Shown in pieces: positions 6,275 through 7,908 of a DNA stretch of 50,759 nt (the stretch's first letter is position 1; the number at the start of each line of letters is the position of its first letter). This DNA comes from Yinghuangia soli (GTDB lineage: Bacteria; Actinomycetota; Actinomycetes; Streptomycetales; Streptomycetaceae), in the NCBI RefSeq assembly GCF_021502675.1, contig NZ_JAKFHA010000005.1:373731-424489 (forward strand), written 5' to 3'. Made by a program: the position numbers and the translations under genes. Below the pieces are notes generated by a model that was not told where the DNA came from, searched no databases, and worked only from the letters and a program-made list of their open reading frames with translations.

Positions 6275-6312
6275 TTGAGATGAGCGCAGGGTCGCCCCTA
6301 GGGTGTGCCGGG
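6275..6312 (+). promoter_or_regulatory. Candidate leaderless promoter for the 6312 gene
   Basis: TTGAGA (6275-6280) and TAGGGT (6299-6304) are separated by 18 bp. The GTG at 6312 lies 7 nt after the -10 box, the distance expected if transcription begins at the start codon. No Shine-Dalgarno sequence precedes this GTG, which agrees with a leaderless mRNA. Confidence 0.45.
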
Positions 6313-7043
6313 TGACGAAGCTGAACCAGATCATCGCGGTGGAGAAGGGCGTCAAGAGCAAGTCCTTCCAGGAGCTCACCCAGGCGCATCAGGACTTGCA
6401 GAAGTCCCCTCTGCTGTCCGGCATTTCACGGACCTACCAGGCCAAGGACGAAGAGGGCGAGCAGCTCCCGCCCGAGTCGACCCGGGTCCAGGTGCGGGCC
6501 GAGGACGTGCTGCGCAGCACGGCGGCGACCCTGACCCGGCTCTTCGACGTGACCGCGACCAAGGACTGGGCGAACTGCGAGGCCCGGGCCGACGTGGTGG
6601 TGGCCGGCACGCCGCTGCTGCGTGACGTCCCGGTGAGCTACCTGCTCTTCCTCGAGAAGCAACTCGTCGACCTGCACACGTTCGTGCGCAAGCTCCCCGT
6701 GCTCGACGCCGCCGAGACGTGGTCGCTGGACGCCTCGACGGACGCCTGGCGCACCGATCCGGTCCGCACCGTGCGCACCAAGAAGGTGCCGCGCAACCAC
6801 GTCAAGGCCGAGGCCACCGCCGAGCACCCGGCCCAGGTCGAGATGTACTTCGAGGACGTCCCGGTCGGCTACTGGACGACCGTGAAGTTCTCCGGCGCGC
6901 TGCCTGCCCGGCGGATCAACGAACTCGTCGACCGGGTCGAGAAGTTGCAGCACGCCGTGAAGTTCGCCAGGGAAGAGGCGAACAGCGCGGAGGTGCAGGA
7001 CCGCAACCCCGGCGCCGTGGTGTTCGACTACCTGCTCGGGTAG
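6312..7043 (+). CDS. Conserved actinobacterial protein of unknown function (DUF7873-like)
   Basis: A 243-aa soluble protein with no signal peptide or membrane segment. It is rich in charged residues, with a likely helical C-terminus (INELVDRVEKLQHAVKFAREEAN). Highly conserved-looking blocks are TKLNQIIAVEKGVKS at the N-terminus, ATKDWANC and RTKKVPRNHVKAEATAEHPAQVE. From memory this resembles the family named DUF7873, found in streptomycetes and some of their phages; I could not check that. Its function is unknown. GTG 6312 (VTKLNQ) is preferred over GTG 6303 because the conserved family start is TKLNQ and a -10 box lies at leaderless distance. It is followed by a terminator and then two tRNA-like RNAs, which raises the possibility of a role in RNA metabolism, but nothing in the sequence proves it. 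Confidence 0.7.
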   Translation: MTKLNQIIAVEKGVKSKSFQELTQAHQDLQKSPLLSGISRTYQAKDEEGEQLPPESTRVQVRAEDVLRSTAATLTRLFDVTATKDWANCEARADVVVAGTPLLRDVPVSYLLFLEKQLVDLHTFVRKLPVLDAAETWSLDASTDAWRTDPVRTVRTKKVPRNHVKAEATAEHPAQVEMYFEDVPVGYWTTVKFSGALPARRINELVDRVEKLQHAVKFAREEANSAEVQDRNPGAVVFDYLLG

Positions 7044-7054
7044 TCTCCGAAGCC

Positions 7055-7078
7055 CCCGCCGGACGGCAATCCGGCGGG
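7055..7078 (+). terminator. Terminator hairpin after the 6312 gene
   Basis: A perfect 9-bp stem, CCCGCCGGA (7055-7063) and TCCGGCGGG (7070-7078), with a 6-nt loop, begins 11 nt after the stop codon. A second, longer GC-rich hairpin (GGTCCG at 7077-7082 with CGGACC at 7109-7114, inner GCCCC/GGGGC) follows directly and overlaps it, so the two could be alternative folds. Confidence 0.65.
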
Positions 7079-7125
7079 TCCGGCCGGGCACCCCGCCCCG
7101 CGCAGGGGCGGACCGGCCACCCACG

Positions 7126-7254
7126 CTCAATCTGAGACTCGTCGTGACGACGCGGTCAAGTGGGGGTTCGAATCCCTCCCCCGGCACTCCTGCCGGGGTA
7201 GCCCAAATCGGCAGAGGCAGCCGCGATCAACTTCAACGTCCTGCCCAGTTTGAG
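7126..7254 (+). ncRNA. Circularly permuted tRNA-like RNA, unit 1 (bacterial Y RNA-like or permuted tRNA)
   Basis: Complete tRNA elements occur in permuted order. First comes a T-arm: GGGGG 7162-7166, loop TTCGAAT 7167-7173, CCCTC 7174-7178. Then the 3' acceptor strand CCCCGGC (7179-7185), a 6-nt connector ACTCCT, the 5' acceptor strand GCCGGGG (7192-7198), TA as positions 8-9, and a D-arm GCC/GGC (7201-7203, 7216-7218) whose loop holds the conserved GG at 7210-7211. The acceptor strands pair perfectly (7 bp). An anticodon-arm-like stem joins CGCGGT (7151-7156) to GCCGCG (7220-7225), and CAAGT fills the variable-loop position. Outside it, CTCAATCTG (7126-7134) pairs with CAGTTTGAG (7246-7254) with one U-U mismatch, closing the molecule. 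There is therefore no ordinary anticodon loop. Bacterial Y RNAs, partners of Ro60/Rsr, are known to carry tRNA-mimicking modules of this kind; a genuine permuted tRNA gene is the alternative. Exact RNA ends are not known. Confidence 0.72.
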
Positions 7255-7288
7255 TATTCGCCACCGGCGGCCCGGGTCGACCGGGTGC

Positions 7289-7389
7289 GGGCGGTCATCG
7301 TCGGATGCGGGTTCGATTCCCGCTTCCCGCTCTCCCTGCGGGAATGGTCCAACGGGAAGACACGGCGACTTCACGGATGACCTGCGCCC
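7289..7389 (+). ncRNA. Circularly permuted tRNA-like RNA, unit 2 (tRNA-Gly-like module)
   Basis: This has the same order as unit 1. T-arm GCGGG 7307-7311, loop TTCGATT 7312-7318, CCCGC 7319-7323. The 3' acceptor strand TTCCCGC (7324-7330), connector TCTCCCT (7331-7337) and 5' acceptor strand GCGGGAA (7338-7344) follow, the last a perfect 7-bp match. Then come TG, D-stem GTC/GAC (7347-7349, 7359-7361) and a D-loop with GGG at 7354-7356. The T-arm and acceptor resemble tRNA-Gly. The ends close by GGGC (7289-7292) with GCCC (7386-7389), GGTCATC (7293-7299) with GATGACC (7376-7382) and GTCG (7300-7303) with CGGC (7363-7366, one G-U). This leaves a 9-nt bulge (7367-7375) and a 3-nt bulge (7383-7385) on the 3' strand. 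A bulged terminal helix plus a tRNA-like head is the Y RNA plan. A terminator follows 40 nt later. Confidence 0.72.
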
Positions 7390-7428
7390 TTAAACGTATC
7401 GGGCGGCACGAATCGGTGGCACACCAGG

Positions 7429-7457
7429 AGCCCGGGGGCAGGATAGGCCCCCGGGTT
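7429..7457 (+). terminator. Strong terminator after the tRNA-like RNAs
   Basis: CCCGGGGGC (7431-7439) and GCCCCCGGG (7447-7455) form a perfect 9-bp stem with a 7-nt loop. One G-U and one A-U pair extend it to 11 bp. No protein gene lies between it and the RNA block, so it most likely ends a non-coding transcript. Confidence 0.7.
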
Positions 7458-7710
7458 CCGTCGATCGAGTGAACGAATCCGCGGGTTGTGCGGAGCGTAA
7501 TCAAGCGAATGCATTGCGTGATATTCTTGGCATAGTCGCTTACGGAATGGTTGCGAATTTCGCAGTTCCGTCGTGATTCGGTCCGGATTTCATGACGACG
7601 GACCCGGCGGCCGACACCCGGCAACCCCCGCTGATGTTGTGTGCGGTATCTCGACCTCCTCGATCGAGTGAGGAAGAGGTACACCGTTCGACGCACACGG
7701 AGGTGTCCCC
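7458..7710. other. Gene-free stretch with palindromes
   Basis: No convincing ORF, and clearly lower GC than the genes around it. It holds AATGCATT (7508-7515), the dyad TGCGAA-T-TTCGCA (7552-7564) and a CTCGATCGAG palindrome near 7664. These could belong to the promoter of the small ORF at 7711, but no clear -35/-10 pair was found. Confidence 0.4.
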
Positions 7711-7866
7711 GTGAGTACTTGGGGCTGGAAGTGTCAGAACACGTCCTGCTCGGCCAACCGAGGACGGGACCGTCAGCGGTACGTCTCCGCGCATGCGGCA
7801 GCAGTCGCCGGGCGCGCACACACCTCGGCCACCTCGCACCCCACCACGGTGGTGGAGTTCCGGTGA
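7711..7866 (+). CDS. Possible small protein, 51 aa
   Basis: A GTG start sits 7 nt downstream of a good ribosome-binding site (GGAGG at 7699-7703). The ORF encodes VSTWGWKCQNTSCSAN at its start, with two cysteines and two tryptophans in the first 14 residues, followed by a polar Ala/His/Thr-rich tail. I do not recognise the family. Support is the RBS and the frame only; the third-position GC bias is modest. It lies between the tRNA-like RNAs and a C16 tract, convergent with tex. It may be spurious. Confidence 0.3.
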   Translation: MSTWGWKCQNTSCSANRGRDRQRYVSAHAAAVAGRAHTSATSHPTTVVEFR

Positions 7867-7892: not shown

Positions 7893-7908
7893 CCCCCCCC
7901 CCCCCCCC
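7893..7908. repeat. C16 homopolymer
   Basis: Sixteen consecutive C residues lie between the small ORF and the convergent tex stop codon, inside a longer C-rich run (about 7885-7925). Such a tract is slippage-prone in replication and sequencing, so the exact count should be treated as uncertain. Confidence 0.8.

What the first reader, a model, noticed from the sequence alone, without database searches (positions are those of the whole stretch)
7126..7389. Two tandem circularly permuted tRNA-like RNAs (Y RNA-like tRNA mimics or permuted tRNA genes)
Seen directly: twice in 270 nt, a tRNA T-arm plus 3' acceptor strand is followed by a short connector and then the perfectly complementary 5' acceptor strand, positions 8-9 and D-arm with its GG. 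The connectors are alike (ACTCCT; TCTCCCT). In both units the sequences where the anticodon loop should be instead run outward and pair with each other, closing a terminal helix. Known: bacterial Y RNAs that bind the Ro60 orthologue Rsr have a terminal helix plus a tRNA-mimicking module, usually encoded near Rsr. True permuted tRNA genes are known from some algae and archaea, but I know of none established in bacteria. Unusual here: two copies in tandem, no Ro60/TROVE gene in the visible 50 kb, and different 'isotypes' (unit 2 is tRNA-Gly-like).
Basis: partly seen in the sequence, partly recalled or inferred. Interest (0 to 1): 0.9.

Follow-up and report, generated by a model that had tools for sequence, protein, structure and literature searches.

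The report
Twin tRNA-mimic RNA beside DUF7873 gene
Next to a gene of unknown function lies one structured RNA carrying two 'cut-and-rejoined' tRNA look-alikes; the same gene-RNA pair recurs in about a hundred related bacteria examined and among the tRNA genes of several phages, so it looks like an undescribed RNA-protein machine built on tRNA mimicry.

Summary
Window 7126-7389 holds two circularly permuted tRNA-like domains (acceptor stems 7/7 paired). They look not like two separate Y RNAs but like domains of one RNA of about 360 nt (roughly 7095-7459), just downstream of a DUF7873 gene (6303-7043). In 150 genomes of the family, all 93 matches of 55 bits or more to a domain-2 model lie beside DUF7873, and 93 of 94 DUF7873 copies have one. 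All 13 helices tested, including a probable pseudoknot, show both-side changes. The A15-U48 pair is kept. Domain 1 has a tRNA-Leu-like D-arm, and about half its connectors read N-CCA. Ro60 lies on another contig with its own YrlA-like RNA. DUF7873 occurs in 73 phage records. Of ten read, all have at least one unit downstream and eight have annotated tRNA genes nearby. Best reading: a new tRNA-mimicking ribonucleoprotein, probably phage-linked, processed by tRNA enzymes. RNA and pairing are well supported; function is inferred. I found no description in the papers searched.

The parts
6303..7043 (+). DUF7873 (PF25283) protein gene, 246 aa, the conserved protein partner
   Evidence: Pfam PF25283 390 bits; the only gene shared by all 42 diverse loci compared
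7095..7459 (+). Approximate extent of the single noncoding RNA with two tRNA-like domains, from the hairpin/pseudoknot after the DUF7873 stop codon to the 3' hairpin (ends not mapped)
   Evidence: Conserved block across 59 diverse loci chosen from 105, covarying helices
7126..7134 (+). 5' strand of pseudoknot helix PK-b (CTCAA.CTG), pairs with 7246-7254
   Evidence: Helix 37-41 x 166-170; 93% paired, 3 of 5 pairs with both-side changes, 7 of 500 shuffles reach the count; window strands by eye
7151..7155 (+). Domain 1: 3' strand of anticodon-stem equivalent (CGCGG), pairs with 7221-7225
   Evidence: AC-stem1: 3 of 3 pairs with both-side changes, 79% paired; extension to 5 bp by eye
7162..7178 (+). 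Domain 1 (tRNA-Leu-like): T-arm with TTCGAAT loop
7179..7198 (+). Domain 1: 3' acceptor strand (7179-7185), connector ACTCCT (7186-7191; first base A = position 73 equivalent), 5' acceptor strand (7192-7198)
   Evidence: 7 of 7 pairs with both-side changes across relatives
7199..7225 (+). Domain 1: positions 8-9, D-arm with GG, then 5' strand of anticodon-stem equivalent (7221-7225)
   Evidence: D-arm closest to Leu in 130 of 133 loci, ties shared
7227..7262 (+). Conserved linker carrying the 3' strands of the pseudoknot helices
7260..7266 (+). 5' strand of outer helix P-out (GCCACCG), pairs with 7414-7420
   Evidence: 2 of 6 pairs with both-side changes; exact window register by eye
7270..7291 (+). 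5' strands of P-mid (7270-7275) and P-in (7283-7291) with the conserved internal loop TCGACC between; pair with 7399-7404 and 7381-7389
   Evidence: P-in: 9 of 9 pairs with both-side changes
7298..7303 (+). Domain 2: 3' strand of anticodon-stem equivalent (TCGTCG), pairs with 7363-7368
   Evidence: 6 of 6 pairs with both-side changes
7307..7323 (+). Domain 2: T-arm with TTCGATT loop
7324..7344 (+). Domain 2: 3' acceptor strand (7324-7330), connector TCTCCCT (7331-7337), 5' acceptor strand (7338-7344)
7345..7368 (+). Domain 2: positions 8-9, D-arm with GG, and 5' strand of anticodon-stem equivalent
7381..7420 (+). 3' strands of P-in (7381-7389), conserved TTAAACG loop, P-mid (7399-7404) and P-out (7414-7420)
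7427..7459 (+). 3' hairpin with a GGATA-type loop (GGAGCCCGGGGGCAGGATAGGCCCCCGGGTTCC)
   Evidence: Such a hairpin in 133 of 174 loci against 3 of 174 shuffled, but in only 4 of the 10 named phage loci; 7 of 7 pairs with both-side changes

Best explanation
The element is one noncoding RNA of about 360 nt that acts together with the DUF7873 protein encoded just upstream. It has a 5' pseudoknot that encloses a tRNA-Leu-like domain, an outer helical arm that carries a second tRNA-like domain, and a 3' hairpin. Each tRNA-like domain is a circular permutation: the acceptor stem is closed by a short connector, and the anticodon stem opens into the body of the RNA. SHOWN by computation: the fold, its conservation, the near one-to-one pairing with DUF7873 in the window's family, and the placing of the pair among phage tRNA genes. 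INFERRED: that the two units are one transcript; that the tRNA-like domains are read by tRNA enzymes; that RNase P and 3'-processing enzymes cut out the connectors, leaving open acceptor ends with CCA. MOST LIKELY FUNCTION (inferred, about one in three): an RNP with two tRNA elbows and acceptor stems but no anticodon loop occupies tRNA-binding factors. In phages it would act as an uncleavable decoy or carrier that protects the phage tRNA set against host tRNA-cutting defences. Streptomyces and relatives would have kept it for tRNA or ribosome homeostasis under stress.
For: Pairing: 93 of 93 R1 matches of 55 bits or more lie on the same strand at the end of or just downstream of DUF7873 (offsets -20 to 300 nt, median 210), and 93 of 94 DUF7873 copies have one, in 150 genomes of the window's family. 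In named genomes, 80 of 80 DUF7873 loci kept have at least one unit and 62 have two. Structure: all 13 helices tested have both-side changes; in 12 of 13 no shuffle of 500 reaches the observed count, and PK-b is reached by 7 of 500. A15-U48 is kept in 119 of 123 loci for each unit, with G15-C48 in L176 and L183 for unit 2. tRNA identity: domain 1's D-arm is closest to tRNA-Leu in 130 of 133 loci; the first connector base is A in 110 of 123. Processing hint: N-CCA in 60 of 123 (unit 1) and 16 of 123 (unit 2) connectors, against 0 of 18 Ro60-linked units; in phage/viral loci 14 of 24 and 10 of 24. Phage context: DUF7873 in 73 phage records; 8 of 10 phage loci read have annotated tRNA genes within 5 kb; 12 of 28 viral contigs have ARAGORN tRNA predictions within 4 kb. 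Independence from Ro60: 23 of 23 examined DUF7873 loci from genomes without a TROVE match keep at least one unit. A decoy role was suggested for YrlA's tRNA-like domain against an anticodon nuclease (passage of PMC7790460 seen).
Against: No transcript, processing or binding data. DUF7873 is mildly acidic in the window (pI 6.2), and its predicted fold matches no solved protein at E of 0.001 or less; only two of the five AlphaFold2 models are confident (88.8 and 88.2; the others 67-71). One domain is often missing by the strict finder (14 of 56 loci, 18 of 80), so two domains may not be essential. For P-out, slid versions reach 6 cells with both-side changes against 7 observed. In the Streptomyces-type genomes read the locus is not in a tRNA array, so an anti-defence role does not explain its presence there. 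N-CCA is absent from half of unit 1 and most of unit 2 connectors, including both in the window. The divergent DUF7873 copy in L058 has no match. The window's own PK-a pairing is not in the consensus register.
Confidence: 0.45

Rival explanations
1. A ribosome-facing, tmRNA-like machine. Connectors are excised as in two-piece permuted tmRNA, the two acceptor ends are aminoacylated, and DUF7873 plays the part of SmpB, placing one or both tRNA-like domains in ribosomal tRNA sites.
For: Topology matches permuted two-piece tmRNA (recalled): T-arm and 3' acceptor strand first, then the 5' strand, with a long helix in place of the anticodon arm, a pseudoknot and CCA in the connector. A dedicated small protein partner. 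The first connector base A and the Leu-like D-arm fit a LeuRS-like substrate.
Against: No conserved G3-U70: U70-G3 in 3 of 59 domain 2 sequences and 0 of 59 domain 1 sequences. No match to tmRNA families above threshold in the window. No tag reading frame was established (not formally tested). Most unit 2 connectors lack CCA.
Confidence: 0.2
2. A Ro60-free cousin of the Y RNP. DUF7873 replaces Ro60, and the tRNA-like domains tether or gate a nuclease such as PNPase for structured RNA.
For: Same permuted tRNA module as YrlA (weak match; for the Ro60-linked one). YrlA's tRNA-like domain binds PNPase in the Rsr-YrlA-PNPase machine (PMC8394870, passages read).
Against: DUF7873 shows no fold match to a solved protein at E of 0.001 or less. 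Architecture differs: two domains plus a pseudoknot. N-CCA connectors are absent from 18 Ro60-linked units. The phage tRNA-gene setting is not explained.
Confidence: 0.2
3. The RNA is a cis element of the DUF7873 mRNA, such as a 3' UTR stabiliser or attenuator processed by tRNA enzymes, with no role of its own.
For: Lies 3' of the gene on the same strand in 93 of 93 cases, and a hairpin often follows.
Against: In L185 the RNA lies upstream of DUF7873. In the Microcoleus phage an RRXRR/HNH gene sits between them. Elaborate covarying tertiary marks exceed what a stabiliser needs.
Confidence: 0.08
4. Two ordinary YrlA Y RNAs bound by the Ro60 encoded elsewhere in the genome.
For: Weak RF02553 hits. 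A TROVE match is present in this genome. DUF7873 and TROVE co-occur slightly more than by chance: 62 both, 30 DUF7873 only, 27 TROVE only, 31 neither, Fisher p 0.017, not corrected for kinship.
Against: Pair present without a TROVE match in 30 of 92 DUF7873 genomes; divergent Ro60 could have been missed. All strong model matches lie beside DUF7873. The Ro60 locus has its own YrlA-like unit. Scores far below the Rfam threshold.
Confidence: 0.06
5. An artefact: relics of tandem tRNA genes that mimic a permuted order at their junction.
For: Such junctions do give background: the four weak R1 hits (45-51 bits) that I fetched are tandem tRNA-Asn genes.
Against: No tRNA in the window, no outer tRNA halves, a strong covarying body outside the tRNA parts, and units after DUF7873 in phages whose hosts belong to three bacterial phyla.
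Confidence: 0.01

Closest known systems
YrlA (bacterial Y RNA, Rfam RF02553)
   Same: Circularly permuted tRNA-like module: T-arm, acceptor closed by a loop, D-arm, outward helix instead of an anticodon loop. Y RNA and tRNA superpose with circular permutation (PMC11472068, passages read).
   Different: Two modules in what looks like one RNA of about 360 nt with a pseudoknot and a 3' hairpin; partner gene DUF7873 rather than Ro60; N-CCA in many connectors, 0 of 18 in Ro60-linked units; scores 22-24 bits against a threshold of 69.
tmRNA, in particular two-piece permuted tmRNA (recalled; RF00023, RF04321)
   Same: tRNA-like domain whose anticodon arm is replaced by a long helix, a pseudoknot, reversed strand order, CCA in the excised loop, a dedicated small protein.
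   Different: Two tRNA-like domains, both with full D-arms; no conserved G3-U70; no tag frame established; DUF7873 is not SmpB.
Permuted tRNA genes of algae and archaea (recalled)
   Same: 3' half before 5' half, connector holding discriminator and often CCA.
   Different: No anticodon loop; the anticodon-stem strands continue into a larger conserved RNA.
GOLLD RNA of phage and mycobacterial tRNA arrays (search listing with abstract starts, and a reference title)
   Same: Large noncoding RNA living in tRNA arrays.
   Different: No GOLLD match at Rfam gathering scores in the loci scanned; this RNA contains the tRNA-like domains itself and has a fixed protein neighbour.

Membership tests
YrlA / bacterial Y RNA | circularly permuted tRNA-like module with D-, T- and acceptor arms | tested here: met
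YrlA / bacterial Y RNA | encoded next to a Ro60/Rsr (TROVE) gene | tested here: not met
   own TROVE match on another contig; DUF7873 loci from genomes without a TROVE match keep at least one unit, 23 of 23 examined
YrlA / bacterial Y RNA | one module on a basal stem of 5' and 3' ends, total 90-150 nt (PMC8394870) | tested here: not met
   two modules tied by covarying helices into one body of about 360 nt; transcript ends not mapped
YrlA / bacterial Y RNA | Rfam RF02553 gathering score 69 bits | tested here: not met
   23.6 and 22.0 bits; the Ro60-linked unit of the same genome also falls short, 32.5 bits
YrlA / bacterial Y RNA | binds Rsr and PNPase | not testable with these tools
   needs biochemistry
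tmRNA | alanine identity pair G3-U70 in the tRNA-like domain | tested here: not met
   3 of 59 (domain 2) and 0 of 59 (domain 1)
tmRNA | SmpB partner | tested here: not met
   neighbour is DUF7873; SmpB itself was not searched for
tmRNA | resume codon and tag reading frame | not tested
   no formal test was run
tmRNA | Rfam gathering score for a tmRNA family | tested here: not met
   no match in the window; RF04321 13.3 of 47 bits, T-arm only
permuted tRNA gene | 3' acceptor half precedes the 5' half, joined by a connector | tested here: met
permuted tRNA gene | an intact anticodon loop | tested here: not met
   anticodon-stem strands continue into conserved linkers; ARAGORN finds no tRNA
permuted tRNA gene | connector holds discriminator plus CCA | tested here: inconclusive
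   N-CCA 60 of 123 (unit 1), 16 of 123 (unit 2), not in the window itself

The most novel reading that the evidence does not exclude
A phage-born, two-headed tRNA machine. The RNA is cut at both connectors by the cell's own tRNA maturation enzymes into three base-paired pieces with two real CCA ends; one is charged with leucine and one with a second amino acid. With DUF7873 it enters ribosomes or tRNA enzymes as a double tRNA mimic. It would be a third natural kind of cellular tRNA mimic beside tmRNA and Y RNA.
Probability: 0.2. Interest if true: 0.97.

Novelty: categorically new. Interest (0 to 1): 0.88.

Why it matters
It defines an RNA-protein pair with no description in the papers searched, whose RNA contains two tRNA mimics. 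It gives a job candidate to an uncharacterised Pfam family, DUF7873. It also shows that circularly permuted tRNA modules are not limited to Ro60 RNPs, and adds a conserved RNA to the open question of why large phages carry tRNA arrays. The pair can be tested directly in ordinary Streptomyces and in cultured Arthrobacter or Gordonia phages.

Tried and rejected
Ordinary YrlA: rejected as membership on Ro60 linkage, size and Rfam score. Tandem-tRNA junction artefact: four weak model hits (45-51 bits) were fetched and all four were tandem tRNA-Asn genes; this explains part of the background but not the window. Fold homology of DUF7873: no PDB or viral-model match at E of 0.001 or less, and TM-scores are low. 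Sequence against PDB: best E 0.76 for the single protein and 0.088 for the profile. No NCBIfam or PADLOC match, PHROG at best E 0.12. Conserved neighbours: DUF7873 is in 42 of 42 loci; the next three clusters (37, 22 and 18 loci), as far as listed, lie over the same gene in other frames or strands; the largest other cluster is in 4 loci. Short peptide in the 5' region: repeated CTGA/CTCA hexamers looked coding in some loci, but in-frame stops in others made me drop it (by eye). Sigma-70 promoter and T-rich terminator scan of 7000-7700: nothing found. DUF7873 in a sample of the phylum: 6 of 296 genomes, all in the window's family; the named-genome scan shows it also in Actinomadura, Thermomonospora and Lentzea. 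Background of the finder in the 80 named loci: 3 hits upstream and 13 on the opposite strand; in the 28 viral loci 5 and 17. Dropped before counts: one search counts only the 123 loci with exactly two finder hits; one search aligns 59 of 105 loci with suitable spacing; one search leaves out L058 and L060; one search keeps 18 Ro60-linked units that pass a D-arm filter; searches take the first two T-stem-perfect hits of a locus (in L189 the first is probably a chance hit). Literature: searches found no description; the YrlA discovery paper (PMC4201824) is not held, so its content is recalled.

Full report
OBSERVATION. The window holds two units in which a T-arm and the 3' acceptor strand come first, then a short connector, then the perfectly complementary 5' acceptor strand and the D-arm (unit 1 from 7162, unit 2 from 7307). 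Both have T-stems 5/5 and acceptor stems 7/7 paired. The same finder gives 4 hits in 865,645 shuffled bases, and two weaker hits on the window's minus strand. ARAGORN finds no tRNA in the window and Rfam gives nothing at gathering thresholds. At relaxed thresholds RF02553 (YrlA) matches both units, at 23.6 and 22.0 bits against a gathering score of 69.

NEIGHBOUR GENE. The RNA follows a 246-aa gene of Pfam family PF25283, DUF7873 (6303-7043, 390 bits), for which no paper was found. Among the 80 named-genome loci kept, 62 have two and 18 have one. In 28 viral contigs, 13 have two, 10 one, 1 three and 4 none by the strict finder. Of those four the covariance model later matched L173 (90.2 bits), L179 (31.9) and L175 (24.8) but not L181, whose stretch ends soon after the gene; in L185 the RNA lies upstream of the gene (73.6 bits, 22 loci and the window searched). 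In 42 diverse loci DUF7873 was the only gene shared by all; the largest other gene cluster was in 4.

ONE-TO-ONE TEST. A covariance model of domain 2 (R1, 40 sequences) was run on 150 genomes of the family. All 93 matches of 55 bits or more lie on the same strand beside a DUF7873 gene (offsets -20 to 300 nt, median 210; the -20 is at a partial gene match), and 93 of 94 DUF7873 copies have one. The exception is a divergent copy, L058. At least 15 of the 40 training sequences come from these genomes, so bit scores are inflated for them; the neighbourhood result does not depend on that. The next matches score 51 bits or less: they include domain 1 units and short hits beside TROVE genes, and the four that I fetched are tandem tRNA-Asn genes, whose junction imitates a permuted tRNA.

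FOLD. An open search for stacked covarying pairs on 59 diverse sequences returned the tRNA stems of both units except D-stem 1 and anticodon-stem 1, plus helices that tie the units into one body; its list also holds weaker alternatives. The tying helices are an outer helix P-out (GCCGCC/GGUGGC), P-mid (CGCCGG/CCGGCG), P-in (9 pairs, all with both-side changes), a 3' hairpin, and two crossing helices around domain 1 (GAGCG/CGCUC and GCUGA/UCAGC), that is, a pseudoknot. Thirteen helices were tested. For 12 of them no shuffle of 500 reached the observed count of both-side changes; for PK-b 7 of 500 did. Shuffles ignore kinship, so the slid controls matter too. Observed pairing is 79-100%. The margin over slid versions is small for T1 (up to 80% against 99%), AC-stem1 (68% against 79%) and the 3' hairpin (67% against 88%), and in both-side cells for P-out (6 against 7) and AC-stem1 (23 against 28). 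RNAalifold gives 37 pairs for domain 2, 33 with both-side changes, and 19 for domain 1, 14 with both-side changes. In the window itself PK-a is not in the consensus register; a shifted alternative with one bulge (7106-7113 with 7238-7246) is visible by eye only.

tRNA MARKS. In the 123 loci with exactly two hits, T8 is present in 122 and 123 (units 1 and 2), A14 in 122 and 117, and A15-U48 in 119 and 119. G15-C48 replaces A15-U48 in unit 2 of L176 and L183, an exchange that keeps the Levitt pair; the other exceptions break it. Domain 1's D-arm is closest to tRNA-Leu in 130 of 133 loci with ties shared; domain 2 is mixed, most often Trp (75.5 of 133). The first connector base of domain 1 is A in 110 of 123, and N-CCA opens the connector in 60 (domain 1) and 16 (domain 2) of 123; C follows the first base in 112 and 119. 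In phage and viral loci N-CCA is found in 14 of 24 and 10 of 24, while 35 of 126 ordinary tRNA genes there encode CCA. Ro60-linked units from the same family have N-CCA in 0 of 18. Connector length varies from 4 to 38 nt within the finder's limits. This pattern is what one expects if the connector is removed as a tRNA trailer plus leader, but no cleavage is shown.

RO60. The own genome has one TROVE match (56.8 bits over part of the model), on another contig, with a YrlA-like unit just upstream of it (32.5 bits). In 150 genomes, DUF7873 and TROVE are both present in 62, DUF7873 alone in 30, TROVE alone in 27 and neither in 31. All 23 examined DUF7873 loci from TROVE-negative genomes keep at least one unit. 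The weak association (p 0.017, no correction for kinship) leaves room for cooperation but not dependence.

PHAGES. A tblastn search finds DUF7873 in 73 phage records: Vibrio 29, Gordonia 12, Rhizobium 12, Klebsiella 7, Serratia 6, Arthrobacter 3, Pseudanabaena 2, Rhodococcus 1, Microcoleus 1. I read the stretch around the gene in ten of them. Eight of 10 have annotated tRNA genes within 5 kb, often many on both sides. At least one permuted unit follows in all ten: two in L186, L187, L188, L189, L190, L191, L192 and L195, one in L193 and L194. L189 and L191 rest on model hits (70.5 and 28.3 bits; 37.7 and 23.0 bits, the latter behind an inserted RRXRR/HNH gene). L193 rests on the finder alone and has no model hit. 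Five phage proteins and the L058 paralogue were checked and all belong to PF25283. In viral contigs 12 of 28 loci have tRNA predictions within 4 kb, 71 in all; L163 and L169 look like the same phage. In the named cellular genomes I saw no such array: 14 of 80 loci have an ARAGORN call, and 10 of these lie just after DUF7873 over the domain 1 region, which I take to be spurious.

PROTEIN. The best AlphaFold2 model is confident (pLDDT 88.8, pTM 0.74), a second is close (88.2), the other three are not (67-71). No match at E of 0.001 or less was found in the PDB or in viral models. The window protein is mildly acidic. Its function cannot be read from sequence or fold.

READING. Shown by computation: one conserved structured RNA body with two permuted tRNA-like domains, locked to DUF7873 in this family, present beside phage tRNA genes and in bacterial chromosomes. 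Inferred: a single transcript; an RNP; recognition by tRNA enzymes; connector removal; decoy or carrier function in phages. The decoy idea has a precedent: the authors of PMC7790460 suggest that YrlA's tRNA-like domain could competitively inhibit an anticodon nuclease (passage read). The tmRNA-like and nuclease-tether rivals remain open.

NOVELTY. The tRNA module is of the YrlA kind, but the YrlA features of Ro60 linkage, size and Rfam score were tested and not met, and the tested tmRNA and permuted-tRNA criteria also fail. I found no description in eight literature searches and no Rfam 15 family at gathering score over the RNA in the loci scanned. bioRxiv and most subscription papers were not searchable, so prior description cannot be excluded.

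Noticed in passing
L001:401-602 (own genome, upstream of the Ro60-like gene): Three direct repeats of 40 nt (GGTGCGCAGGC..CGGTTACTTC; 68-73% identity to the first) spaced about 80 nt, the last running into the YrlA-like unit; possibly repeated Ro60-binding stems.
   Followed up: partly
L036, L041, L044, L046, L047, L053: Several TROVE loci show two or more permuted-unit finder hits beside the Ro60-like gene (L036 four on one strand); only some pass the D-arm filter.
   Followed up: partly
L187:2384-2912 (Gordonia phage GodonK): The phage tRNA array with DUF7873 and the twin RNA also holds a full tmRNA match (RF00023, 90.3 bits); the record's feature table shows no tmRNA there.
   Followed up: no
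L191:6175-7452 (Microcoleus phage): An RRXRR/HNH gene (IscB-like, recalled) is inserted between DUF7873 and its RNA.
   Followed up: partly
L195:6018-6097 (Klebsiella phage FBKp24): The record annotates 'tRNA-Sup-TTA' over the linker and the T-arm/3' acceptor strand of unit 2, probably a false call on the twin RNA.
   Followed up: no
L090, L092, L104, L117 and others, just after DUF7873: ARAGORN reports tRNA-Phe, tRNA-Val or an undetermined tRNA over the domain 1 region; such loci may carry false tRNA annotations.
   Followed up: partly
window 7893-7908: A run of 16 C just after a 51-aa reading frame (7711-7866).
   Followed up: no
L058:2697-3425: A divergent second DUF7873 copy (37% identity) in a genome that also has a normal one; no twin RNA was found beside it.
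   Followed up: partly
14 control genomes of the genome search: Among the 14 named control genomes only Deinobacterium chartae matches, and it matches both DUF7873 and TROVE; its DUF7873 locus was not read.
   Followed up: no
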